A stretch of DNA of 64,000 nucleotides from an uncultured Opitutia bacterium. Lineage in GTDB: Bacteria; Verrucomicrobiota; Verrucomicrobiia; Opitutales; Opitutaceae. The DNA lies in contig CAIMFY010000110.1 in assembly GCA_903840415.1 (NCBI GenBank), positions 1-64,000 of the forward strand, given 5' to 3'. The notes beneath the pieces were generated by a model. It had not been told where the DNA came from. It saw only the letters and a list, made by a program, of their open reading frames with translations, and did not search any database. Of this stretch, positions 42,853-54,622 are shown piece after piece. Made by a program: the position numbers and the translations under genes. The stretch's first letter is position 1; each line of letters begins with the position of its first letter.

Positions 42853-44052
42853 ATGCCCTACACCGAAGATCGCGCCACCTGGTTTGAAGGCCAAGGTCTC
42901 TGGCAGCACATTCCCGCTGCCGACTGGCACGATTGGACGTGGCAGTTGAAGCATCGCCTGACGACGACCGCGCAACTGGAGCAGTTCATGACGTTGACCG
43001 CCGAGGAAAAGGCGGGCTGCGAGTTTGCGAACCACAAGCTGGCCCTCGCGATCACACCGTATTTCTTCAACCTGATCGATCATTCGGACCCGAATTGCCC
43101 GATTCGCAAGCAGCTCATCCCGCGCGCCGGTGAGATGGTGCTCAGCGATGAGGAGCAACTCGACTCGCTCGGGGAAGACGAGCATTCGCCGGTCCCCGGC
43201 CTCGTGCATCGCTACCCAGATCGCGTGCTCTTTCTCGTGACGGATCGGTGCGCGGCCTACTGCCGGTATTGCACGCGCAGCCGGCTGGTCTCGAACGCTC
43301 AGGACTATAATTTCCATCCAGAATACGAGCAGGCGCTCCGTTACATCGAGTCGCATACCGAGGTGCGCGACGTGCTGCTGTCCGGTGGCGATCCGCTGCT
43401 CTTGTCTGACAAGAAACTCGAGCACCTGCTCGCACGGTTGCGCGAAATCAAGCACGTGGAGTTTATTCGGATCGGTTCACGCATCCCGGTGTTTTTGCCG
43501 CAGCGGATCACGCCGGAGCTGTGCGAGATTTTCAAAAAATACGGTCCGATCTGGATGAGCATTCATGTCAACCATCCGAAAGAATGCACGGCGGAGCTTC
43601 GCGACGCATGTGCGCGGTTGTCGTTTGCGGGCGTGCCGCTTGGCAACCAGAGCGTGCTGCTCGCCGGCGTGAACGACGATGCCGAAGTGATGAAGGCGCT
43701 CGTCCACCGGTTGCTGCGGATGCGGGTGCGGCCATATTACCTTTATCAGATGGACCTCATCACCGGTGGGGCGCACTTCAAGGTCGATGTTCGGAAGGGG
43801 CTGGAAATCATCCGGGCGCTGCGCGGTCATACGACCGGTTACGCCGTGCCGCAATACGTGATCGATGCGCCCGGCGGCGGCGGCAAGGTGCCGATTAATC
43901 CGGATTATGTTGAAAAGATCACCGACAACGAAGTGATCTTCAGAAATTACGAAGGACAGCGCTTCCACTATCCGTTAAAAAGCACGCCGCGGAAACTCGC
44001 CGGCGGTGCGCCGCTCCCAGCGACTGGAATTGAATCGATCATGGTGCACTGA
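42853..44052 (+). CDS. KamA-family radical SAM aminomutase
   Basis: The product has 399 residues. The radical SAM cluster motif is CAAYCRYC (C-x3-C-x2-C) in TDRCAAYCRYCTRSRLVSNA. DVLLSGGDPLLLSDKKLEHL and FIRIGSRIPVFLPQRIT are typical of lysine 2,3-aminomutases, and the PLP-binding Lys is in DAPGGGGKVPINPDY. Length fits KamA better than the shorter EpmB (about 340), but the substrate is not settled: no efp or lysine-fermentation genes are near. The gene diverges from carA. Confidence 0.88.
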   Translation: MPYTEDRATWFEGQGLWQHIPAADWHDWTWQLKHRLTTTAQLEQFMTLTAEEKAGCEFANHKLALAITPYFFNLIDHSDPNCPIRKQLIPRAGEMVLSDEEQLDSLGEDEHSPVPGLVHRYPDRVLFLVTDRCAAYCRYCTRSRLVSNAQDYNFHPEYEQALRYIESHTEVRDVLLSGGDPLLLSDKKLEHLLARLREIKHVEFIRIGSRIPVFLPQRITPELCEIFKKYGPIWMSIHVNHPKECTAELRDACARLSFAGVPLGNQSVLLAGVNDDAEVMKALVHRLLRMRVRPYYLYQMDLITGGAHFKVDVRKGLEIIRALRGHTTGYAVPQYVIDAPGGGGKVPINPDYVEKITDNEVIFRNYEGQRFHYPLKSTPRKLAGGAPLPATGIESIMVH

Positions 44053-44061
44053 GTCAGATTG

Positions 44062-44091
44062 TTGATGTCGAAAAGCGATTATTGATATAAA
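44062..44091 (+). promoter_or_regulatory. Candidate sigma-70-type promoter
   Basis: TTGATG (44062-44067) and TATAAA (44086-44091) are separated by 18 bases in an AT-rich stretch directly after kamA. The match to the consensus is good, though no transcription start is demonstrated. It could serve the RNA that ends at the terminator at 44264-44298 or the riboswitch leader farther down. Confidence 0.4.
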
Positions 44092-44200
44092 TTTAGTCAC
44101 TGGTTATCAGCGGTTTGCATTTTCGGAAAAAATGCGATGGTTTTCTTTGGGATATTTTTGAATGTTTTGAATCCCAGTCCGTCTATCCCCGCGTAGTCAG

Positions 44201-44221
44201 CACTGTCCTGGTAAGACAGTG
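44201..44221 (+). repeat. Short hairpin CACTGTC/GACAGTG
   Basis: A perfect 7-bp inverted repeat (44201-44207 with 44215-44221) with a 7-base loop lies between the candidate promoter and the terminator. It could be part of a structured leader or an operator. No T-run follows, so it is unlikely to be a terminator. Confidence 0.4.
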
Positions 44222-44263
44222 AATGTTTTTAGTTCTTACGGTTTGCTTGGTGTTAGGTCACTT

Positions 44264-44298
44264 GAGCCGCCCCTTCATTGGGGCGGCTCTTGTGTTTT
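44264..44298 (+). terminator. Strong intrinsic terminator hairpin
   Basis: GAGCCGCCCC (44264-44273) pairs perfectly with GGGGCGGCTC (44280-44289) around the loop TTCATT, and TTGTGTTTTC follows. It ends transcripts coming from kamA or from the candidate promoter upstream. It lies 96 bases before the riboswitch, so the riboswitch and receptor probably need their own promoter in between. Confidence 0.7.
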
Positions 44299-44393
44299 CG
44301 GCCTCCCAGTTGAGGCAAAGCAGGCCGTCGGCCCTGATTGGGCTGACGCAGATTCTACTTGCGCGCCGAACCATCGCGCATTGTGTGCGCGTT

Positions 44394-44494
44394 GCCTGTA
44401 GGGGTGTCCTCCGCGGAGGACTGAGACTGTGGCACGACCGGCCGCTCGACCCTTCGAACCTGAACGGATCATGCCGACGAAGGAAACAGCAGGC
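44394..44494 (+). ncRNA. Thiamine pyrophosphate (THI-element) riboswitch
   Basis: The segment shows the conserved TPP aptamer parts in order. Stem P1 is GCCTG (44394-44398) pairing with CAGGC (44490-44494). TAGGGGTGTCCTCCGCGGAG is the P2/P3 region, followed by GACTGAGA, the CTGAGA element that binds the HMP ring. CGACCCTTCGAACCTGAAC is the P4/P5 region, and GGATCATGCCGACGAAGG is the diphosphate-binding part. It sits 76 bases before the start of a TonB-dependent receptor. In TPP excess the fold would lower expression of that receptor; no alternative structure that sets the mechanism is proven. Confidence 0.9.
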
Positions 44495-44570
44495 GCCGCG
44501 ACGAGCGCCTTGGGGTGCGCGTCCAGCGCCCCTTCATGCGGGAGTTCTGTTTGGGCCGGGCATCACCAAC

Positions 44571-46925
44571 ATGAACCTACCGACCCGCATCCTCGTCCTC
44601 GCCGCAATCCTCGCGACCCAGCACGTTTCGCGTGCGCAGATCACACCGCCGCCCGTCACCACGCTCGCGCCCTATGTCGTGACCGGAGTGCCCGTTGACG
44701 AATCCGTCAACCCGCTCACGCGCGAAACCGATGGCGTGCTCGGCGACGCCCGCAACCCGCTCGCAACGCCGCGGGCGTTCAGCACCGTCACCGCGGCGCT
44801 GGTGAATGAGCGCGCGATCGACGGCTTGCGCGAGATTCTCCAGTTTACGCCCGGCGCCTACGCGCCGTCGAGTTACGGTGAACTCACCGTCGCCTACATC
44901 CGCGGCGATGTCGCCGAGGCCTACGTCAACGGCCAGCGCCGCAGCAACAACCTCTACGGCTACCTCCCATCGTTCAACGGCGTCGAGGCCGTCGATGTCG
45001 TGCGCGGGCCCGGTTCGGTCGTCTTCGGCGCGGGCTACCTCACCGGCGGTTACGTCAACTACGTCACCAAACAGCCGCTCTTCTCCGGTCCGGCGACGAC
45101 TGTCACCACGCGCTTCGGCACCTGGACGCCCGGCTCGCGCACCTCGTTTACCAACGGCTCCGTCCAAATCGACTCCACCGCGCCCGTCTCCGACAAATTC
45201 GCATGGCGCCTCAGCTACGAGGGGAAAACCGGCGACACGTTTTTCCAACGCGCTGGCGTGAAAGACGACCGCAGCGATCTCTTCGGCGCGTTTACGTGGA
45301 AACCGGATTCGATCACCACGATCGCATTCAACGCCCAGTGGCTTTTCCAAAACGCGCCCGAGTCGCTCGGCGTCAACCGCGTCACGCAGGACCTCATCTG
45401 GCATTCGCTTTATTTCACCGGCACTTCGGCCGACGGTGCTTACAACCCCGGCCCGATTCCCGCCGCCGGCGAGGTGAAGCTCCGTCGCGACGCCACGCTC
45501 TACTCGCGCGGCGACTATGCCGAAGCCCACGCCGGTTCCGCGCAACTCATCGCGACCTTCGTGCCCTCGCCGTCGCTCACCGTCGTGAACCGCTCGCTCT
45601 ACGATCGCGTGAACCGCGAGCGCTACCTCCAGATGGAATACGCCGAGTTCGTCCGGCAAGACACGTTTGAGAACCGCACCGAAGCCCACCTCGATCTGCC
45701 GTCGGTCGGCGAATTCCCGCAGTCGGTCGTCGCCGGTGCGACGGTGCGCTGGTCGAAAGTCCGCGCATTCGAAAACTACGCCAACGAATACCTCTACAAT
45801 TTCGACATCACCAACCCGTCGCAGGTCTTCAACGAGTCGCGCGCGTTTCCCAATTCCTACCTCCCTGGCTCGCCCGGTCCCAATGGCGTCCTCTTTTTCT
45901 CACCGGTGGATCCGGTTTATCCGCATCCCGAGACCGGCGATTCGCGCGTCTGGAATCCCGCCATTTTCGTGCAGGACGAAATCAAATTTTATCACAACAT
46001 CAGCCTCCTCGCCGGCGCGCGCCTCGACGATTTTTCCGCCCGCGCAACCGATCCGCTGCCGCCCGCCGGCACGAAGTCCGCCTCGGCGTCGGCGAGCAAG
46101 GCCGCCGCCTCCGGCGATGCGAGCCTGCTCTTCCGCCCGTCGCGCACCGCCAGCTACTATGTCACGTGGCAGGCGGTCGCCGCCCAACACGGCAATGTCG
46201 GCGGCGGCGGCATCAGTCTCCAATCCGACGGCACGCTCGACGCCAACGATCTCCGCGACCGCAGCGATCTGCTCGAGGCCGGCGCGAAGTTTTCATTGCT
46301 CGAAAACAAATTCTACACCGGCGCCGCGCTCTTCAAGCAAAAGCGCGCCCACACTTCGATCGGCGACGTGCATAGCGACATCCGGGTGAGCGGCCTCGAA
46401 CTCGATGCCATTTACCAACCGAGCACGAACTTCAGCGCGACGCTCAACGCCACCTTGCAGCAGGGAAAATATCTCAACACCGCGCCGTTCCAGCTCGGCG
46501 GCCGCTCGATCCTCGACACGTTTGCGCTCGGCCGCGGCCCCGGCGGCCAGGGCAACGCGACCACCAGCTTTTCGCCTTTCGACGATCAAGTCGGCGTGGG
46601 CGACTGGCCGCTCGTCGGTTTCTCGCACGTGCTTTTCAACGGCAGCGTGCGCTACCGTTTCGGCAACGGCTTCGGCGCCGGTCTCGATGGCCAGTGGCAG
46701 AGCCCGCAGCGCGGCAACCTCGACAACGAGTGGCACATTCCCTCGCAATACACACTCAACGCCTCGTTTTTCTACGAAGCGAAAAAATGGTCCGCGAATC
46801 TCGACGTGCTCAATCTTACCGACCAGCACAACTGGATCCACAACGGCGACGCTTACACCGCGAGCGGGCTCATCATGCAGGAACTCCCGCTGCGAGTGCA
46901 GGGCTACGTCAAGAAGACGTTCTGA
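44571..46925 (+). CDS. TonB-dependent outer-membrane receptor, probably for thiamine
   Basis: The product has 784 residues from the ATG at 44571 with a signal peptide (RILVLAAILATQHVSRAQ). The plug domain includes the sequence VDVVRGPGSVVFGAGYLTGG, and the C-terminus ends in the aromatic Phe (VQGYVKKTF) of outer-membrane beta-barrels. The barrel has many amphipathic strands. The TPP riboswitch upstream means that it is shut down when thiamine pyrophosphate is plentiful. So the cargo is probably thiamine or a precursor; the sequence alone does not show this. Needs TonB/ExbBD energy from elsewhere. Confidence 0.88.
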   Translation: MNLPTRILVLAAILATQHVSRAQITPPPVTTLAPYVVTGVPVDESVNPLTRETDGVLGDARNPLATPRAFSTVTAALVNERAIDGLREILQFTPGAYAPSSYGELTVAYIRGDVAEAYVNGQRRSNNLYGYLPSFNGVEAVDVVRGPGSVVFGAGYLTGGYVNYVTKQPLFSGPATTVTTRFGTWTPGSRTSFTNGSVQIDSTAPVSDKFAWRLSYEGKTGDTFFQRAGVKDDRSDLFGAFTWKPDSITTIAFNAQWLFQNAPESLGVNRVTQDLIWHSLYFTGTSADGAYNPGPIPAAGEVKLRRDATLYSRGDYAEAHAGSAQLIATFVPSPSLTVVNRSLYDRVNRERYLQMEYAEFVRQDTFENRTEAHLDLPSVGEFPQSVVAGATVRWSKVRAFENYANEYLYNFDITNPSQVFNESRAFPNSYLPGSPGPNGVLFFSPVDPVYPHPETGDSRVWNPAIFVQDEIKFYHNISLLAGARLDDFSARATDPLPPAGTKSASASASKAAASGDASLLFRPSRTASYYVTWQAVAAQHGNVGGGGISLQSDGTLDANDLRDRSDLLEAGAKFSLLENKFYTGAALFKQKRAHTSIGDVHSDIRVSGLELDAIYQPSTNFSATLNATLQQGKYLNTAPFQLGGRSILDTFALGRGPGGQGNATTSFSPFDDQVGVGDWPLVGFSHVLFNGSVRYRFGNGFGAGLDGQWQSPQRGNLDNEWHIPSQYTLNASFFYEAKKWSANLDVLNLTDQHNWIHNGDAYTASGLIMQELPLRVQGYVKKTF

Positions 46926-47021
46926 AGGCACCGACGACCCGCAATGTTACAAACCGGTCACGTGATGCTCGAAAGATTGTCACTTGAGTTACTGCCACCA
47001 CGCTGCGGGCTAAACTCGACG

Positions 47022-47375
47022 ATGAAAATCCACCTCTTCAACAAGGATCAGCAGGCCGAACTTTTTCCCGCTGGCTCGTCGGTGTTTAGCGAAGGGGACA
47101 AGGGCGACGAGATGTTCGCGGTCATCGACGGCCAGGTTGACATTGTGATCCGGGGTAAAGTGGTCGAGACCATGGAGGCGGGCGGGGTGTTTGGCGAGAT
47201 GGCGCTCGTGGAGGAATTGCCGCGCACTGCCGCCGCCATCGTGAAGTCCGACGCAAAGCTGGTGCGGATCGATAAGAAGCGTTTTATGTTTCTGGTGCAG
47301 CAGAATCCTTTCTTCGCGCTCCAACTGATGACCATCATGGCGGATCGTTTGCGCCGGATGAACGAGAAGCTCTGA
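47022..47375 (+). CDS. Stand-alone cyclic-nucleotide-binding domain protein
   Basis: The product has 117 residues from the ATG at 47022. It is a single CRP-like cNMP-binding domain: FPAGSSVFSEGDKGDEMFAV, GGVFGEMALVEELPRTAAAI and KLVRIDKKRFMFLVQQNPFF. The phosphate-binding cassette keeps the Glu of FGEMAL and the Arg of PRTA, so it can be expected to bind cyclic nucleotide. There is no DNA-binding HTH. It lies between the thiamine receptor and the first TIR gene of the cluster, 156 bases before the latter. A regulatory role for the cluster is possible, not shown. Confidence 0.8.
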   Translation: MKIHLFNKDQQAELFPAGSSVFSEGDKGDEMFAVIDGQVDIVIRGKVVETMEAGGVFGEMALVEELPRTAAAIVKSDAKLVRIDKKRFMFLVQQNPFFALQLMTIMADRLRRMNEKL

Positions 47376-47531
47376 TTCTGTTCGCGGTCCCCGGCGTTGG
47401 CGGGTGGCGGCGGCTTGCCGCTGGCGTTCATACCGTCGTCGCGACGTGAGTGGCTCCGTCGGGGATCGGCCCGTTTCTCCTCGTCACGCCGCAAGTTGCT
47501 TGTCACTGGTTTACGCGTTCCGTTCCCGTCC

Positions 47532-49895
47532 GTGTCTGATCCAACTTCCATGCCCGCGATCCGCGCGGTCTTCCTCGGCTATGCCCGCGAGGACACGGCT
47601 GCTGCCTGCTGCATTGCCGACGCGTTGCGCGGTTTCGGCGTGGAAGTGTGGTTCGACCAGAGCGAGTTGCGCGGCGGCGATGCATGGGACCAAAAAATCC
47701 GCCAGCAAATTAAGGACTGCGCCCTCTTCGTCCCGGTGATTTCCGCGCATACCGAGGCTCGGGGCGAAGGCTATTTCCGGCTCGAATGGAAACTCGCCGA
47801 CGAGCGCACCCACCTCATGGCGAAAGGCGTGCCGTTCCTCCTCCCCGTGGTCGTCGATGCGATCGCCGACGGCGACGCGATGGCGCCGGACAGTTTCCGC
47901 GCCGTGCAATGGACCCGCCTGCCCGCCGGCGCGCCGACACCGGAATTTGTCTCGCACGTGAAACGCCTGCTCGATGCGCCGCGTAAATCTCAGCCCGGCA
48001 GCGCGCGCCCCGCGTCTGCCGCTCCCCTCGCGGCCACTCCGCGCTCCACCGGAATTCCCCTGTGGCTCGGTGCCGTGGTGGGAATCGCGCTGCTCGGCGC
48101 TGTCGCCTTCTTCGCGCTGCGCTCCGCCCCGAAAGAAAGTGCCCCGGTCGCACCGGCAACCTCCGTCGCGGAAACGAAACCGACTCCCTCGCCTCTCACT
48201 CCCAGTCCGTTGCCCGCGGCGAGGAAAGTCGCCGACAAATCCATCGCCGTCCTCCCGTTTACAAACATGAGCGACGAGAAGGCCAGCGCCTTCTTCGCCG
48301 ACGGTGTCCACGAGGACATCCTCACAGACCTCGCGCTCATCCCCGAGCTCAAGGTCGTCTCGCGCACGACGGTCACTCAATATCGCGATACCAAGAAGAC
48401 GATGAAGCAGATCGGCGACGAGCTGGGCGTGTCCTACATTCTCGAAGGCAGCGTGCGCCGCGTCGGCAACAAAGTTCGAGTGACCGGCCAGCTCATCAAC
48501 GCGCGCACCGACGAACACGTCTGGGCGAAGAAATACGATCGCGACATCACCGATGTCTTTGCGATCCAAGCGAGCCTCGCCGACGAGATCGCGACGGCAC
48601 TGCAGGCCGCCATCACGCCGGAGGCCAAGAAGCAGATCGAGCGGCGGCCCACGGAAAACCCCGTCGCTTACGATGCGTTTCTGCAAGGCCGCGACACGAT
48701 CAATAAAATGCCCAGCGGTCGCCGCGCCGATCTCGTGAAGGCGGAAGGATTCTTCCAGACGGCCGTCGAGCAGGATCCGACCTTTGCGGTCGCTTGGGGC
48801 CAAATGGCAGCGGTGCATGCGCGATTATCGTTCTACAGTTTGGACGCTTCGCCCGAGCGACTGGCGCGCGGCGAGGCGGCTATCGCCAACGCCGTCCGGC
48901 TCGCGCCCGATTCGCCGGACGTGATTCGCTCCGTCGGCACCTTTGCCTACTACGCCCACCGCGACTACGTGACGGCGCGGGAGCAATACGAGAAAATCGC
49001 CCGACTTCAGCCTAACGATCCCACCGTGTTCGAGTCCCTTGGCTTGATTCAACGCCGGCAAGGCCACTGGGCGGAGTCGCTCGCCAATCTTCGTAAAGCC
49101 ACGGAACTCGACCCTGGCAACGCGGGCTACTGGCGAGGGCTGATCCAGTCGTTCCAGAATCTCCGCCGTTGGGACGAGGCCATCGCGGGCCAGCGCCGGC
49201 TGGTCGCCATGCTACCTGACAGCCGGCGTGATCGGCGAGCCTTGGCCGATTATGTTTTTTACGCTACCGGCTCGCGCACAGAACGTGACGCCTTTCTCAC
49301 TCGCGAAACCGCGACTGAGCCCGATTCACCTCTCAGCCTCATGATTCGAAAGGTCTACGCCGCACGCGATGACTATGCGGAGTTCAAGCGACTCGATGCG
49401 CTTCAACCATTCTACGACGGCGAGGATGAGTTCATCGGCTACCACGCGGATCAGGCGGTCAGAAGCGCCGCGGTTTACGCGGCCCACGGCGACATGGCTG
49501 CGGCCCGCGCGCGAATCGCGGATTTCCCCGCAGATTTTTGCGCTCGCTTGCAACGCGAGCCGACCAATCCTGTCGTTCTCTTCAATTTGGCGAGGGCCGA
49601 GGCACTCCTTGGGCACGGGGATGAAGCCGTGCGACTGGCCGAGAAAGCGCGGGAGCTGCTCCCCGAATCCCGCGATGCGCTGGACGGAACGAGCCACCTT
49701 GAGTTGGCGGCCGAAGTCTTCGCGCTGACGGGTGACAAGGACCGCGCGATCGCGCTGCTGACCCGCGTGCTGCAGGTGTCTTCTGGCGTCTGCGTTCGCC
49801 AGCTCCGGGAATATGTGGAACTCGCGCCGCTGCGCGGCGACCCGCGCTTCGAGGCGCTGCTCAACGACCCGAAGAACAGCGCCCCGCAGCTCTGA
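47532..49895 (+). CDS. TIR-transmembrane-TolB_N-TPR protein (TIR paralogue 2)
   Basis: The product has 787 residues from a GTG at 47532; an ATG at 47550 is the alternative. The TIR domain (about 10-148) has FLGYARED (Gly in place of the usual Ser), WFDQSELRGGDAWD and FRLEWKLA with the likely catalytic Glu at 85. A membrane helix is at about 177-196 (LWLGAVVGIALLGAVAFFAL). A TolB_N-like domain begins at about 235 (KSIAVLPFTNMSDEK), followed by TPR repeats to the end. It is the first gene of a three-gene TIR block: the next starts 3 bases after its stop. Its TolB_N domain is nearly identical to paralogue 3, so the two arose by recent tandem duplication. Confidence 0.87.
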   Translation: MSDPTSMPAIRAVFLGYAREDTAAACCIADALRGFGVEVWFDQSELRGGDAWDQKIRQQIKDCALFVPVISAHTEARGEGYFRLEWKLADERTHLMAKGVPFLLPVVVDAIADGDAMAPDSFRAVQWTRLPAGAPTPEFVSHVKRLLDAPRKSQPGSARPASAAPLAATPRSTGIPLWLGAVVGIALLGAVAFFALRSAPKESAPVAPATSVAETKPTPSPLTPSPLPAARKVADKSIAVLPFTNMSDEKASAFFADGVHEDILTDLALIPELKVVSRTTVTQYRDTKKTMKQIGDELGVSYILEGSVRRVGNKVRVTGQLINARTDEHVWAKKYDRDITDVFAIQASLADEIATALQAAITPEAKKQIERRPTENPVAYDAFLQGRDTINKMPSGRRADLVKAEGFFQTAVEQDPTFAVAWGQMAAVHARLSFYSLDASPERLARGEAAIANAVRLAPDSPDVIRSVGTFAYYAHRDYVTAREQYEKIARLQPNDPTVFESLGLIQRRQGHWAESLANLRKATELDPGNAGYWRGLIQSFQNLRRWDEAIAGQRRLVAMLPDSRRDRRALADYVFYATGSRTERDAFLTRETATEPDSPLSLMIRKVYAARDDYAEFKRLDALQPFYDGEDEFIGYHADQAVRSAAVYAAHGDMAAARARIADFPADFCARLQREPTNPVVLFNLARAEALLGHGDEAVRLAEKARELLPESRDALDGTSHLELAAEVFALTGDKDRAIALLTRVLQVSSGVCVRQLREYVELAPLRGDPRFEALLNDPKNSAPQL

Positions 49896-49898
49896 GCC

Positions 49899-52259
49899 AT
49901 GAGCGAAGCGACCTCCGCCATCTTCATCAGCTACGCGCACGAGGACGCCGTCGCGGCGGACCGCATCGCGGAGGCGCTGCGCAGCCACGGCATCGAAGTG
50001 TGGTTCGACCAAAACGAACTGCGCGGCGGCGAGGCGTGGGACCAAAAAATCCGCGGTCAGATCCGCTCCTGCACGCTGCTGATTCCAATTGTTTCCGCGC
50101 ACACGCAGGGGCGCGGCGAGGGTTATTTCCGCCGCGAGTGGAAACTCGCCGCGGAGCGCACGCACGACATGGCGGCGGGGATTCCGTTTCTCGTGCCCGT
50201 CGTGATCGATGACACCGCCGAGTCCGCGGCGATGGTGCCGGAGGAATTCATGCGCGTGCAGTGGACTCGCCTGCAGCACGGCCGGACGACGCCGCAATTC
50301 GCCGCGCAAGTGAAACGCCTGCTCGAAGCGCCGCGCGCCGCTGCACCCACGCGACCCGCATTTCCCGTCGCGGCGCCGGCCGCGACTGCCGTGCCCGCAC
50401 CGGCCGTCGCCGCGCCGGGCGCGACCGGCGTTCCGATCTGGGCGGTTGCGGCGGGTGGCGTCGTGTTGCTCGGCGCCGTCGCTTACTTCGCGCTGCGTCC
50501 CGCGCCGAAAGAGCCGACCGCGCCGGCGAAAGTGGCTGCGGAAACCAAAGCTGCGCCAGCTGCTGCGCTCGCACCCGCTGCGCCGAAAGCCGCCGACAAA
50601 TCCATCGCCGTCCTCCCGTTCACCAACATGAGCGAGGAGAAGGACAGCGCGTTCTTCGCCGACGGCGTCCACGAAGACTTGCTCACCAACCTCGCGCTCG
50701 TGCCCGAGTTGAAAGTCGTTTCGCGCACGACGGTCACACAGTATCGCGACTCGAAAAAAACGATGAAGCAAATCGGCGACGAGCTTGGTGTCGCCTACAT
50801 TCTCGAGGGCAGCGTGCGCCGCGTAGGCAACAAAGTCCGCGTGACTGGCCAGCTCATCAACGCCCGCACCGACGAGCACGTCTGGGCGAAAAACTACGAC
50901 CGCGACCTCACCGACATCTTCGCGATTCAGGCCAGTCTCTCGCAGGAAATCGCGAGCGCGCTGCAGGCGGCCATCACGCCATCGGCGCAGAAATTCCTCG
51001 AGCGCCGGCCGACCGAAAATCCGGTTGCCTATGACGCGTTTCTCAAGGGCCGAACCATCCGCAACACGATGGTCAGCGGCCGGCCGGCGCCACTCAAGCA
51101 GGCGGAGGAGTTTTTCCAGTCCGCCGTCGATCAGGACCCGAAGTTTGCCGCCGCGTGGGGCGAGCTCGCCGTGGCGCATGCGCTGCACGCGTTTTGGGAA
51201 ATCGACAAGACGCCCGCCCGCCTCGCGCGAGGCGATGCCGCGATTGCGCACGCCGTGGAGCTCGCGCCCGACTCGCCCGATGTGATCAGTCAGGTCGGCA
51301 CCTACGCCTATTACGCGCACCGTGATTACGCCAAGGCCACCGAGCAGTTTGAAAAGCTCGCTCGCCTCAAGCCGAACGATCCCACGGTATTCAGTTCACT
51401 CGGGCTGATCCAGCGTCGGCAGGGGCGGTGGGCCGAATCGCTGCTCAATACCCGCCGTGCCGCAGAACTCGATCCTGGTAACGTCAACAACTCGCGTAAC
51501 CTGATCTCGACGTTGCTGTCGGGCCGGCGCTGGCCCGAGCTGCTCGCGGAGCAGCGCCGATTGATGACATTGGTCGACGACAAGGTCCGCGCGCAGTCCT
51601 ACCTGGCGCGGCTTACGTTCTATGCGAGTGGCTCAACCAAGGAAATGGACGGTTTCCTCGCGAGCCTGCCGTCCGAAGAGGCGAGTTCTCCGGATCAGGT
51701 TCTCGTGCGCAAATCGATCGCGGAGGATCGTGGCGATTTTGCGGAATACATCCGCCTCGACCGGCTTCAGCCTTACAACAACATCGATGGGCAAGAGCGC
51801 TACAGGCAGGCGCTTGACGCCGCGACCGTTTACGCGGCCAGCGGGGATTTGGCGGGTGTGCGCCGCCGGCTTGCGGATTTCCCGGCCGAGTTGCGGGCCC
51901 GGATCTCGACCGAGCCTACCAACGCCCGCATCCGCGGCGAACTCGGTCTGATGGAGGCGCTGCTGCGCAACAAGAGCGAAGCCGTCCGCCTAGCGCGCGA
52001 AGGTGCCGAGATGCTGCCCGAATCGCGCGATGCGCTCGACGGTGTGAATTTTTCGCTTTGGATCCTGCTGCGAGTTTACGCGTGGACCGGCGACAAGGAT
52101 CGCGCCCTCGCCGCGCTGGAGCACCTCCTGCACATGCCGAGTCAAGCGGCGGCCGGAACCTACGCGCTTCGCTCCGGTCCGTGGCTCGCGCCGCTGCGCG
52201 GCAACCCGCGCTTCGAGGCGCTGCTGAACGACCCGGTGAACAACGCGCCGCTGTTCTAA
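49899..52259 (+). CDS. TIR-transmembrane-TolB_N-TPR protein (TIR paralogue 3)
   Basis: The product has 786 residues. The TIR domain (about 6-143) has AIFISYAHED, WFDQNELRGGEAWD and FRREWKLA (Glu80). A linker rich in Ala and Pro is followed by the membrane helix (IWAVAAGGVVLLGAVAYFAL, 180-199). The TolB_N domain starts at about 233 (KSIAVLPFTNMSEEKDSAFF), and TPR-type helical repeats follow. It lies 3 bases after paralogue 2 and 2 bases before paralogue 4, so the three are very likely cotranscribed. Close similarity to paralogue 2 drops in the TPR part, which suggests that the sensor ends have diverged. Confidence 0.88.
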   Translation: MSEATSAIFISYAHEDAVAADRIAEALRSHGIEVWFDQNELRGGEAWDQKIRGQIRSCTLLIPIVSAHTQGRGEGYFRREWKLAAERTHDMAAGIPFLVPVVIDDTAESAAMVPEEFMRVQWTRLQHGRTTPQFAAQVKRLLEAPRAAAPTRPAFPVAAPAATAVPAPAVAAPGATGVPIWAVAAGGVVLLGAVAYFALRPAPKEPTAPAKVAAETKAAPAAALAPAAPKAADKSIAVLPFTNMSEEKDSAFFADGVHEDLLTNLALVPELKVVSRTTVTQYRDSKKTMKQIGDELGVAYILEGSVRRVGNKVRVTGQLINARTDEHVWAKNYDRDLTDIFAIQASLSQEIASALQAAITPSAQKFLERRPTENPVAYDAFLKGRTIRNTMVSGRPAPLKQAEEFFQSAVDQDPKFAAAWGELAVAHALHAFWEIDKTPARLARGDAAIAHAVELAPDSPDVISQVGTYAYYAHRDYAKATEQFEKLARLKPNDPTVFSSLGLIQRRQGRWAESLLNTRRAAELDPGNVNNSRNLISTLLSGRRWPELLAEQRRLMTLVDDKVRAQSYLARLTFYASGSTKEMDGFLASLPSEEASSPDQVLVRKSIAEDRGDFAEYIRLDRLQPYNNIDGQERYRQALDAATVYAASGDLAGVRRRLADFPAELRARISTEPTNARIRGELGLMEALLRNKSEAVRLAREGAEMLPESRDALDGVNFSLWILLRVYAWTGDKDRALAALEHLLHMPSQAAAGTYALRSGPWLAPLRGNPRFEALLNDPVNNAPLF

Positions 52260-52261
52260 AA

Positions 52262-54622
52262 ATGAGCGACGCCACCAAAGCCGTTTTTCTCAGCTACGCC
52301 CGCGAGGACACCGCGGCGGCGCGGCGCATCGCGGATGCGTTGCGGGCCTTCGGCGTCGAGGTGTGGTTTGATCAAAGCGAGCTGCGCGGTGGCGACTCGT
52401 GGGACACGAAGATTCGGACGCAGATCAAAACGTGTGCGCTGTTTGTGCCGCTCATCTCGCAGCGCACGGAGGAGCGGCACGAGGGCTACTTCCGCCGCGA
52501 GTGGAAACTCGCCATCGATCGCACGCACGACATGGCCGGCAGCAAGGCCTTCATCGTGCCCGTGGTGATCGACGGGACGCGCGAGGCCGACGCGTCGGTG
52601 CCGGAGGAATTCATGCGCTACCAGTGGACACGGCTTGCCGACGGCGAGCCCACCCCGGAGTTTGTGATGCAGGTGAAGCGACTGCTGGAGGCGCCGAAAA
52701 AGTCGGCGGTCACCGCGGCGCCGAAGGAGAGTTTGTCTGTGAAGCCCGTGTTGGTTTCTGCGCCCGCACACACCTACGAATCCGCACCAGCGGCGTCGCG
52801 TTTACCCGTCGTGCTAGGCGGCATTGCGGTGGCCGCGATTGTGGTGGCGATTTATTTTGCACTGCGTCCGGCCACGAAAGAGCCCGTCGCGGCCTTGCCG
52901 CCGCCGCGGCCGGTGGCCGAGGCCAAGACAGCGCCGGCTCCGATCGTGGCCGCGCCGGCGATCAACGAAAAGTCCCTCGCCGTCCTGCCGTTCGCCAACA
53001 TGAGTGAGGAGAAGGACAGCGGGTTTTTCTCCGACGGCATTCACGAGGACATTCTGACAAATCTCGCGCTCATCCGCGAACTGCACGTCGTTTCGCGCAC
53101 CTCGGTCATGCAGTATCGCAATACGATGAAGACGATCCGCCAGATCGCGCAGGAGCTCGGCGTCGCCTACGTGCTCGAGGGCAGCGTGCGGCGCGCGGGT
53201 AACAAGGTGCGCGTGACCGGCCAGCTCATCCGCGCCGCGACCGACGAGCATGTCTGGGCAAAAAATTACGACCGCGATCTGACGGACATTTTTTCGATCC
53301 AGAGCGCGCTCGCGACCGAGATCGCCGGCGCGTTGCAGGCTGCGCTCTCACCGCAGGAGAAGCAACTCCTTGACCGCCGTCCGACCGACAATCTCGCTGC
53401 CTACGACGCCTACGTGAAGGCGCGGCAGCTGCGGCAAAATGTTAGCAGTGTGCTGGGTGATTGGCTCCAAGCTGAGGTTCTGTTGAAGCAGGCGGTGCAG
53501 CTCGACCCCAAGTTCGCGGCGGCTTGGGCTGAGTTGGGTGCGTTTCATGCTCAAGGTTATTTCAACGAGATCGATCACTCGCCCGCGCGACTCGCGACGG
53601 CAAAGGAGGCCATCGAGACGGCCGTGCGGCTGGCACCCGATGCGCCGGAGGTAATTGAGAAGCTCGGCGATTACTATTACTACGGTTATCGGGACTACCC
53701 ACGCGCCACCGAGCAATACCAGCGCCTCGCGGTCTTGCGGCCAAACGATGCCGCCGTCTACGGATCGCTTGGCCTCATTCACCGTCGGCAGGGTCGTTTC
53801 GCGGAATCGTTGGGTGAATTGCGCCATGCGGCTCAGCTTGAGCCGGGCAACTTGCGCTATGTGCGGACACTCGGAGAACTCACGCTGGCCCTTTGCCTCT
53901 ACGAGGAGGCCGCCATCGCACAGCAGCGAGTGATCGCCCTCACGGCCGGCGACCTGGCCAACGTTGCGCAAGCCACCGCGATCCCCTTCCTGGCCCGCGG
54001 ATCATTGCGGGAAGCGGACGAATTGATCGCGAAGCTTTCGCCGGAACAGCGACACGATCCGCTGGTGGTCGGGCTGCTCAAGAATTTTGCCCTCGCCGCG
54101 GGCGATTTCAAAGGCTTCGTGGCGCTCGATCAGCAACTTCGCTACTACGATGGCTTCGGCAGCCCGCATGGCGCGCAGGATCTGAATGCCGCTTACGTGT
54201 TCGCGGCCCTCGGCGATCGCATCGCGGCAAAGGCGCGCGCTGCCGACGCGGTGGCCGATCTCAAGGCCCAATTGGAAAAACAGCCCGGCAGCGCAACCCT
54301 ATGGTCCAGTCTTGGCGGCGCCTACGTGTTGCTTGGAGATCGGGTCGAGGCGCTCCGATGTGCCCAGCAGGCAATGAACCTCGTCCCCGAGGCGAAAGAT
54401 GCGGTGGCTGGCCCAGGCTTCAGCCTGACCTACGCCTCATGCCTCGCTTGGCTCGGCGATAAGGACCGCGCGCTGGCCGAGCTGGCGAGACTGCTGCGCA
54501 CGCCGTTTGGCGAGAATATTTACTCGGCAAAATTCGGCACCGCGTGGTTCCCGCTGCGCGGCGACCCGCGCTTCGAAGCGCTCGTCAGTGATCCGAAGAA
54601 CAACGCGCCGATCGTGCCGTGA
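52262..54622 (+). CDS. TIR-transmembrane-TolB_N-TPR protein (TIR paralogue 4)
   Basis: The product has 786 residues from the ATG at 52262, 2 bases after the previous stop; the frame upstream is a shadow of paralogue 3. The TIR domain has AVFLSYARED, WFDQSELRGGDSWDTKI and FRREWKLA (Glu80). The membrane helix is at 182-201 (PVVLGGIAVAAIVVAIYFAL). The TolB_N domain starts at about 236 (KSLAVLPFANMSEEKDSGFF). TPR repeats make up the rest. It ends the first TIR block; 75 bases later a pRiA4b-like gene begins. Confidence 0.87.
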   Translation: MSDATKAVFLSYAREDTAAARRIADALRAFGVEVWFDQSELRGGDSWDTKIRTQIKTCALFVPLISQRTEERHEGYFRREWKLAIDRTHDMAGSKAFIVPVVIDGTREADASVPEEFMRYQWTRLADGEPTPEFVMQVKRLLEAPKKSAVTAAPKESLSVKPVLVSAPAHTYESAPAASRLPVVLGGIAVAAIVVAIYFALRPATKEPVAALPPPRPVAEAKTAPAPIVAAPAINEKSLAVLPFANMSEEKDSGFFSDGIHEDILTNLALIRELHVVSRTSVMQYRNTMKTIRQIAQELGVAYVLEGSVRRAGNKVRVTGQLIRAATDEHVWAKNYDRDLTDIFSIQSALATEIAGALQAALSPQEKQLLDRRPTDNLAAYDAYVKARQLRQNVSSVLGDWLQAEVLLKQAVQLDPKFAAAWAELGAFHAQGYFNEIDHSPARLATAKEAIETAVRLAPDAPEVIEKLGDYYYYGYRDYPRATEQYQRLAVLRPNDAAVYGSLGLIHRRQGRFAESLGELRHAAQLEPGNLRYVRTLGELTLALCLYEEAAIAQQRVIALTAGDLANVAQATAIPFLARGSLREADELIAKLSPEQRHDPLVVGLLKNFALAAGDFKGFVALDQQLRYYDGFGSPHGAQDLNAAYVFAALGDRIAAKARAADAVADLKAQLEKQPGSATLWSSLGGAYVLLGDRVEALRCAQQAMNLVPEAKDAVAGPGFSLTYASCLAWLGDKDRALAELARLLRTPFGENIYSAKFGTAWFPLRGDPRFEALVSDPKNNAPIVP

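What the first reader, a model, noticed from the sequence alone, without database searches (positions are those of the whole stretch)
44394..46925. TPP riboswitch controls a TonB-dependent receptor
The aptamer has the complete set of conserved parts (P1, CTGAGA, ATGCCGACGAAGG) and the receptor start is 76 bases later. Known: THI elements precede outer-membrane receptors for thiamine in Bacteroidota. Inference: this organism takes up thiamine or a precursor through a TonB-dependent channel, which gives the receptor a likely cargo.
Basis: partly seen in the sequence, partly recalled or inferred. Interest (0 to 1): 0.6.

Follow-up and report, generated by a model that had tools for sequence, protein, structure and literature searches.

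The report
Vitamin B1 switch controls uptake receptor
This bacterium appears unable to make vitamin B1, and its only B1-sensing RNA switch sits in front of an outer-membrane receptor that most likely imports the vitamin; its relatives keep the same switch but carry one of two different receptors behind it.

Summary
Observation confirmed. The TPP riboswitch (RF00059) at 44390-44502 passes Rfam's cut-off (57.4 against 54.3 bits) and is the only one found in the genome; a TonB-dependent receptor (784 aa) starts at 44571. The organism belongs to Opitutaceae (Verrucomicrobiota), not Bacteroidota. Its 98%-complete genome shows no ThiC, ThiE, TPK or ThiG above cut-off, but has ThiL and a PnuC-family gene: probably a B1 auxotroph that cannot use pyrimidine or thiazole precursors. 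In 61 family genomes ThiC is in 4 of 38 with such a receptor and 19 of 23 without.

Further: relatives carry this receptor family (A) or a distant one (B), never both in the genomes examined, behind the same aptamer, leader and first ~10 codons, with matching flanks in several genera: it looks like receptor replacement behind a kept riboswitch. In seven relatives a PnuC gene and a NadR-like kinase gene stand beside the riboswitch, a candidate for the missing thiamine kinase. My start-codon-hairpin idea was tested and not supported. Riboswitch-linked B1 receptors, and B1 uptake by Opitutales, are already in print.

The parts
44264..44289 (+). terminator-like hairpin with T-rich tail after the upstream KamA-family gene; suggests that the riboswitch-receptor unit has its own promoter after it
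   Evidence: 3 such sites found in 44000-47100, 3.9 expected from shuffles, so weak on its own; no sigma-70-like promoter found
44390..44502 (+). TPP riboswitch aptamer (RF00059)
   Evidence: 57.4 bits, E 1.3e-8; only one found in the genome
44491..44510 (+). hairpin AGGCGC/GCGCCT directly after P1
   Evidence: sequence; part of the expression platform by inference
44512..44532 (+). G+C-rich hairpin GGGGTGCGC..GCGCCCC followed by TTC; candidate attenuator with a weak T run
   Evidence: score 8.4; 1 of 30 shuffles as good
44539..44561 (+). conserved leader element, family consensus CGGGAGTCCGATTTGGGTCGGGC, shared by receptor types A and B
44571..46925 (+). TonB-dependent receptor, type A, 784 aa; first ~10 codons belong to the conserved leader block

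Best explanation
A TPP riboswitch in the 5' leader of a (probably single-gene) transcript holds down a TonB-dependent outer-membrane receptor when the cell has enough TPP and releases it when TPP is short. The cell cannot make thiamine, so the receptor brings thiamine (possibly its monophosphate) across the outer membrane; a PnuC-family protein encoded on the same contig takes it across the inner membrane; an unidentified kinase makes thiamine monophosphate and ThiL makes TPP. Shown by computation: aptamer, receptor class, no synthesis genes found, ThiL and a PnuC-family gene present, arrangement conserved in the family. Inferred: direction of regulation (off with TPP), cargo, inner-membrane partner. 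Least certain: the switching device, most likely attenuation by the hairpin at 44512-44532 competing with pairing of the aptamer's GAAGG (44479-44483) to CCTTC (44531-44535).
For: RF00059 above cut-off, sole copy found. Receptor Pfam domains, TonB-receptor fold in a model of mean pLDDT 70. No ThiC (11), ThiE (30), or ThiG above cut-off; ThiL over cut-off, 194.8 bits (31; 202.3 bits as a protein, 70); PF04973 at C110:166570-167103, 159 bits. In 61 family genomes: ThiC in 4 of 38 with a type A or B receptor and 19 of 23 without (p 1.8e-8); ThiE 4 of 38 and 22 of 23 (1.4e-11); PF04973 over 100 bits 37 of 38 and 5 of 23 (4e-10). First gene after 65 TPP places: type A 18, type B 19, thiC 19, thiM 6, 3 cut by contig ends. 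The 19 full type B receptors found by profile all lie right after a TPP element (36 with 8). Exception that fits: G032 has TPK and an SSF transporter beside its receptor, only a 35-bit ThiL match and a 21-bit PF04973 match.
Against: No expression or binding data. The window's hairpin is followed only by TTC; AUG accessibility does not differ between aptamer-closed and aptamer-open folds (93 leaders), and the window's own free fold does not show the GAAGG/CCTTC helix that two relatives show (52). Fisher tests ignore relatedness. The genome is draft (124 contigs), so absences are not absolute. Four receptor genomes (G004, G008, G035, G046) keep ThiC and ThiE (82). Type A is closest in sequence to siderophore receptors. 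In B. thetaiotaomicron the riboswitch-linked OMthi transcript hardly responded to thiamine (PMC5613172, passages). The PnuC-family gene of this genome was not read and could serve nicotinamide riboside.
Confidence: 0.85

Rival explanations
1. The receptor carries thiamine monophosphate (or TPP) rather than thiamine: ThiL is kept and TPK is absent, so an imported monophosphate would need no further kinase.
For: ThiL matched in 35 of 38 receptor genomes, in some below the curated cut-off; TPK (PF04263) in 1 of 38, G032. G049, rated 100% complete, shows neither ThiL nor TPK, which would fit import of TPP itself.
Against: PF04973 in 37 of 38 receptor genomes; characterised PnuC-type proteins carry unphosphorylated vitamins (recalled). 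A kinase-like gene sits with a PnuC gene beside the riboswitch in seven type B relatives.
Confidence: 0.2
2. The receptor is a siderophore or metal receptor that happens to lie after a TPP riboswitch, or serves some need other than vitamin uptake.
For: Best named family is TonB-siderophor, 90 bits, far below its 223.5-bit cut-off; nearest solved structures are siderophore receptors.
Against: The linkage to TPP is seen in 18 of 19 type A genomes of the 61-genome sample (in the 19th, G045, the element is cut by a contig end), and receptor presence tracks loss of thiamine synthesis (82).
Confidence: 0.05
3. The aptamer is a degraded relic and the receptor is constitutive.
For: Five of 28 model pairs are non-standard and the score is only 3 bits over the cut-off.
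Against: Conserved strands intact; aptamer up to 96% identical to those of other genera; the same-genus aptamer scores 65.7 bits.
Confidence: 0.05

Closest known systems
TPP riboswitch (THI element), Rfam RF00059
   Same: All conserved parts, over the curated cut-off
   Different: One base short before P4 and a few non-standard pairs; nothing that changes the class
OMthi (BT2390) of Bacteroides thetaiotaomicron, riboswitch-linked TonB-dependent thiamine receptor (PMC5613172, passages seen)
   Same: TPP riboswitch directly before a TonB-dependent receptor; mutants without the synthesis operon and OMthi need about 10 times more thiamine than those without the operon alone
   Different: In most Bacteroidetes of that study OMthi, pnuT and tnr3 form one operon, and B. 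thetaiotaomicron also makes thiamine; here the receptor stands alone and synthesis genes are missing. Orthology not tested: no BT2390 sequence was in hand
omr1 of bacterioplankton (PMC10881298, PMC12442306, passages seen)
   Same: TonB-dependent putative B1 transporter, in PMC10881298 with a nearby TPP element in SAR86 and Flavobacteriales; PMC12442306 states that Opitutales use uptake by omr1
   Different: Those works use a gene label from models and transcripts; two exchangeable receptor families and a common leader are not mentioned in the passages I saw
Putative thiamin TonB-dependent transporters in several sequence clusters (PMC2771747, passages seen)
   Same: Already shows that predicted thiamin receptors fall in different clusters
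   Different: Assignments there rest on co-localisation with PnuT and are called unproven; no Opitutaceae case in the passages I saw

Membership tests
TPP riboswitch RF00059 | Covariance-model score over the gathering cut-off | tested here: met
   57.4 against 54.3 bits
TPP riboswitch RF00059 | P1 to P5 pairings and conserved CUGAGA / GAACCUGA / CGAAGG strands | tested here: met
   23 of 28 aligned pairs standard; motifs present
TPP riboswitch RF00059 | Binds TPP and changes gene expression | not testable with these tools
   needs in-line probing or a reporter
TonB-dependent receptor | Plug and beta-barrel domains | tested here: met
   PF07715 36.2 bits, PF00593 37 bits, both over cut-off; fold match to Fiu, PiuA, FoxA (model mean pLDDT 70, plug region poor)
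TonB-dependent receptor | TonB box and dependence on TonB | not tested
   -
TonB-dependent siderophore receptor (TIGR01783) | Score over the curated cut-off | tested here: not met
   90 bits, cut-off 223.5
Thiamine receptor OMthi/Omr1 | Linked to TPP riboswitch | tested here: met
Thiamine receptor OMthi/Omr1 | Sequence orthology to BT2390 | not tested
   no reference sequence in hand
Thiamine receptor OMthi/Omr1 | Genome also has a PnuC/PnuT-type inner-membrane carrier | tested here: met
   PF04973 159 bits at C110:166570-167103, 122 kb away on the contig, not adjacent; thiamine specificity not tested
Thiamine receptor OMthi/Omr1 | Transports thiamine | not testable with these tools
   needs a binding or growth assay

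The most novel reading that the evidence does not exclude
In Opitutaceae one kept riboswitch unit (aptamer, leader and the first ~10 codons) has repeatedly had the receptor behind it exchanged in place between two distant TonB-receptor families, so the RNA fixes the vitamin and the protein is the replaceable part; and these auxotrophs make TPP by a salvage line of receptor, PnuC-type carrier, a NadR-like P-loop kinase acting on thiamine, and ThiL, without thiamine pyrophosphokinase.
Probability: 0.5. Interest if true: 0.65.

Novelty: new member of a known kind. Interest (0 to 1): 0.42.

Why it matters
It gives a vitamin cargo to a receptor that sequence search places nearest to siderophore receptors, and marks a large part of one Verrucomicrobiota family as probable B1 auxotrophs that depend on an outside supply. 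Two receptor families behind one riboswitch offer a natural experiment: same signal, same need, different protein, so residues that bind thiamine could be sought by comparing them. It also points to a testable gap, the enzyme that phosphorylates thiamine where TPK is missing.

Tried and rejected
Start-codon hairpin: the leader element and codons 4-8 form an imperfect inverted repeat across the AUG, and I first took this for an expression platform reaching into the gene. Against: pairing of 5' arms with other loci's coding arms was as good (96 loci, mean z -0.15; window 0.05), synonymous recoding gave stronger pairing than nature (mean z +0.57; window +1.20), both; RNAalifold on 45 of the 94 distinct segments gave 6 pairs, none covarying; none of the 20 proposed pairs is among the 25 highest in mutual information. 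In favour: helix Pa is 83% and helix Pb 70% paired over 91 distinct loci, slid versions at most 53% and 58%; Pa has 15 double changes against a mean of 5.8 (maximum 15) in row shuffles, but slid versions have 7 to 21; Pb has 33 against 26; AUG segments are somewhat more stable than shuffles (94 segments, mean z -1.51; thiC/thiM 16 segments, -0.93; loci without the element 28, -2.17; window itself +1.16). I drop it for the window and leave it weak for the family. The rare codons ACA (40 of 49 Thr at codon 5; 2.9% elsewhere in the same genes) and CGA (41 of 57 Arg at codon 6; 2.2% elsewhere) remain unexplained.

Also rejected: the ThiG match of G000 (20.6 bits over 45 positions, below cut-off) as a real ThiG. 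The promoter scan of 44000-47100 found no sigma-70-like site. Folds of aptamer-closed and aptamer-open leaders gave no change around the AUG. The SSF transporter of G032 as a common partner: no match at E 1e-40 in the other 60 genomes.

Full report
What is there. The aptamer at 44390-44502 is a TPP riboswitch: 57.4 bits, gathering score 54.3, E 1.3e-8, the only match over a gathering score in 64 kb and the only TPP match found in the genome (4.9 Mb, 124 contigs, 98% complete). It is followed by a hairpin at 44491-44510, a G+C-rich hairpin at 44512-44532, a conserved leader element at 44539-44561 and the receptor start at 44571. The receptor has Plug and barrel domains, matches the TonB siderophore family only weakly (90 bits, cut-off 223.5), and a model of it (mean pLDDT 70; much of residues 1-33 and 94-166 under 50) matches TonB receptors such as Fiu, PiuA and FoxA. 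Upstream lie a KamA-family gene (42853-44052) and carA; downstream a cyclic-nucleotide-binding protein. Among the neighbours scanned none is a thiamine gene.

Which organism. Receptors at least 40% identical in the named genome collection carry Opitutae, Opitutaceae, Opitutales or Verrucomicrobia labels (Lacunisphaera, Oleiharenicola, Cephaloticoccus and unnamed MAGs); those at 23-34% lie in Pseudomonas, Burkholderia, Sphingomonas, Methylacidimicrobium and a few others. The contig with the receptor of the same-genus genome G025 (26,249 bases) has the same length as a named 'uncultured Opitutae' contig in that list, so I take them to be the same record. The window is thus Verrucomicrobiota, not Bacteroidota.

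What the genome can make. ThiC is not found, ThiE is not found, ThiG only as a 45-position, 20.6-bit match below the cut-off, TPK is not found. ThiL is present (202.3 bits as a protein) and a PF04973 (PnuC-type) gene lies on the same contig at 166570-167103. From pathway knowledge, without ThiE neither HMP nor thiazole can be joined, so a precursor would be of no use; the cargo should be thiamine or a phosphate of it.

The pattern in the family. In 61 genomes of the family (drawn evenly by the tool), a type A receptor (the window's kind, 44% identity or more) is in 19, a second type B in 19, both in none (Fisher p 2e-4). ThiC is in 4 of 38 receptor genomes and 19 of 23 others; ThiE in 4 of 38 and 22 of 23; clear ThiG in 3 of 38 and 17 of 23; PF04973 over 100 bits in 37 of 38 and 5 of 23. 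Among the 51 genomes at least 90% complete with at most 5% contamination: ThiC 4 of 31 and 17 of 20. Genomes are related, so the p values are too small; but in the two genera where one sampled genome has a receptor and the other has ThiC (g2, g7) the contrast goes the same way, and g15 agrees for ThiE. Receptor genomes that keep synthesis: G004, G008, G035, G046. Non-receptor genomes without ThiC: G027, G051, G053, G058. Among receptor genomes ThiL is not matched in G022 and G049 and only at 35 bits in G032. G032 is the telling exception: it alone of the 61 has TPK, next to an SSF transporter and its type B receptor.

What stands behind the riboswitches. The 65 TPP places of the 61-genome sample are followed by type A (18), type B (19), thiC (19), thiM (6); three are cut by contig ends. 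With 103 further places (of 112 newly printed, whose printed list is the best-scoring part) the count over 168 places in 155 genomes is B 80, A 47, thiC 29, thiM 8, unclassified 4; again no genome shows A and B. In the whole family as held, 225 of 252 genomes have a TPP match.

Two receptors, one riboswitch. A and B are both TonB receptors but only distantly alike (profile alignment 23% identity, E 1.3e-17), and profiles of them pick different nearest solved structures: A the PiuA, enantio-pyochelin and FoxA receptors, B the pesticin receptor FyuA. Yet their aptamers form one group: mean identity between genera is 0.78 for A with B, 0.84 within A, 0.74 within B, and 0.59 and 0.58 to thiC aptamers. 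The leader element and the first 30 coding bases are as alike between A and B as within each (0.48 to 0.76 per six-base step), after which all comparisons fall to 0.3-0.4. This shared element was found in 96 of 125 receptor loci (A 36, B 60); of the 29 without it 16 are type B loci with a different hairpin directly before the start. Five of 45 genera with a classified locus hold both types (g4, g8, g37, g39, g45). Homologous flanking genes on the same side and strand were found between A and B loci in g4 (both sides), g37 (upstream in several pairs, both sides in one), g39 (upstream; 85-92% for the KamA-like gene, at unequal distances) and g45 (partial, at unequal distances), none in g8, where the B contig ends at the riboswitch. 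The best reading is exchange of the receptor in place; differential loss from an ancestral pair is the main alternative and was not tested with a tree.

How the switch works. By analogy with the class it should be an off switch (inference). A hairpin followed by at least three T in eight bases was found in 78 of 96 leaders; in 55 of 96 at most 1 of 30 single-base shuffles scored as well. CCTTY lies just before the leader element in 42 of 96 against 14.9 expected, and GAAGG is in the aptamer of all 96; CCTTY within 70 bases after the aptamer occurs in 45 of 96 receptor leaders and 6 of 37 thiC/thiM leaders. Folds without the closed aptamer pair GAAGG with CCTTC in two relatives, not in the window. 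So attenuation is my choice, with low confidence for the window, whose hairpin is followed by TTC only. A start-codon hairpin was tested and not supported (both sides under Tried and rejected); the conserved rare codons in the block are real and unexplained.

A candidate for the missing kinase. In type B relatives of genera g48, g9 and g20 a PnuC-type gene and a P-loop gene of family AAA_28, similar to the kinase part of NadR (74-78 bits, far below that family's cut-off of 341), stand divergently beside the riboswitch: in 7 of 9 loci of these genera with at least 1.5 kb of upstream DNA (not in G197 and G203); in the near genus g21 in 0 of 6 loci, one of which has only 820 bases upstream. As ThiL needs thiamine monophosphate, this gene may phosphorylate thiamine. 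But a PnuC gene with an AAA_28 gene also occurs in G012 (L319), which has ThiC and no such receptor, so a nicotinamide riboside role is possible. I could not read the neighbourhood of the window genome's own PF04973 gene.

Literature. Riboswitch-linked thiamine receptors are known from Bacteroidetes (PMC5613172, passages), a TonB-receptor gene in a TPP-riboswitch operon from Variovorax (PMC10409787, passages), omr1 from SAR86 and Flavobacteriales (PMC10881298, passages); Opitutales are said to use omr1 (PMC12442306, passages); predicted thiamin receptors fall in several clusters (PMC2771747 and PMC3400609, passages). A gut-genome survey lists PnuT among B1 transporters and ThiL or ThiN as last step (PMC6593275, passages). 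Searches (listings, open-licence papers only) showed no title or abstract start on the A/B exchange or on a ThiL-dependent line without TPK in Opitutaceae; papers outside that library were not searched.

Verdict. The finding is right and ordinary in kind; the surroundings add an apparent auxotrophy that makes the cargo assignment strong, and an exchange of receptors behind one riboswitch that deserves a proper tree and a bench test.

Noticed in passing
window 47397-54622 (+): Three tandem related genes with N-terminal TIR-like sequence; the first two scan as TIR_2 plus tetratricopeptide repeats, the third judged by eye.
   Followed up: partly
window 44539-44600 and the loci: Leader block with conserved rare codons ACA and CGA at codons 5-6 in many relatives (the window has ACC and CGC), shared by unlike receptors; no covarying structure found; function unknown.
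   Followed up: yes
L040, L041, L043, L044, L191-L193, L195-L200, L203, L205, L218 before the receptor start: 16 type B loci have a different hairpin (GGATCTCAA or a variant .. TTGAGATCC) directly before the start codon in place of the usual leader element; the listed segments among them fold at z -2.8 to -5.9; a likely separate expression platform.
   Followed up: partly
G049 (one contig, rated 100% complete), type B receptor: Neither ThiL nor TPK nor ThiE found; how it makes TPP is open, import of TPP is one possibility.
   Followed up: no
G032, L079:4731-6797 (+): TPK and an SSF symporter convergent with the type B receptor; the symporter has no match at E 1e-40 in the other 60 genomes.
   Followed up: partly
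   Followed up: no
G014:C387:13382-16041: A 36%-identical relative of the receptor lies next to a PF04973 gene, perhaps a receptor for another PnuC-type vitamin.
   Followed up: no
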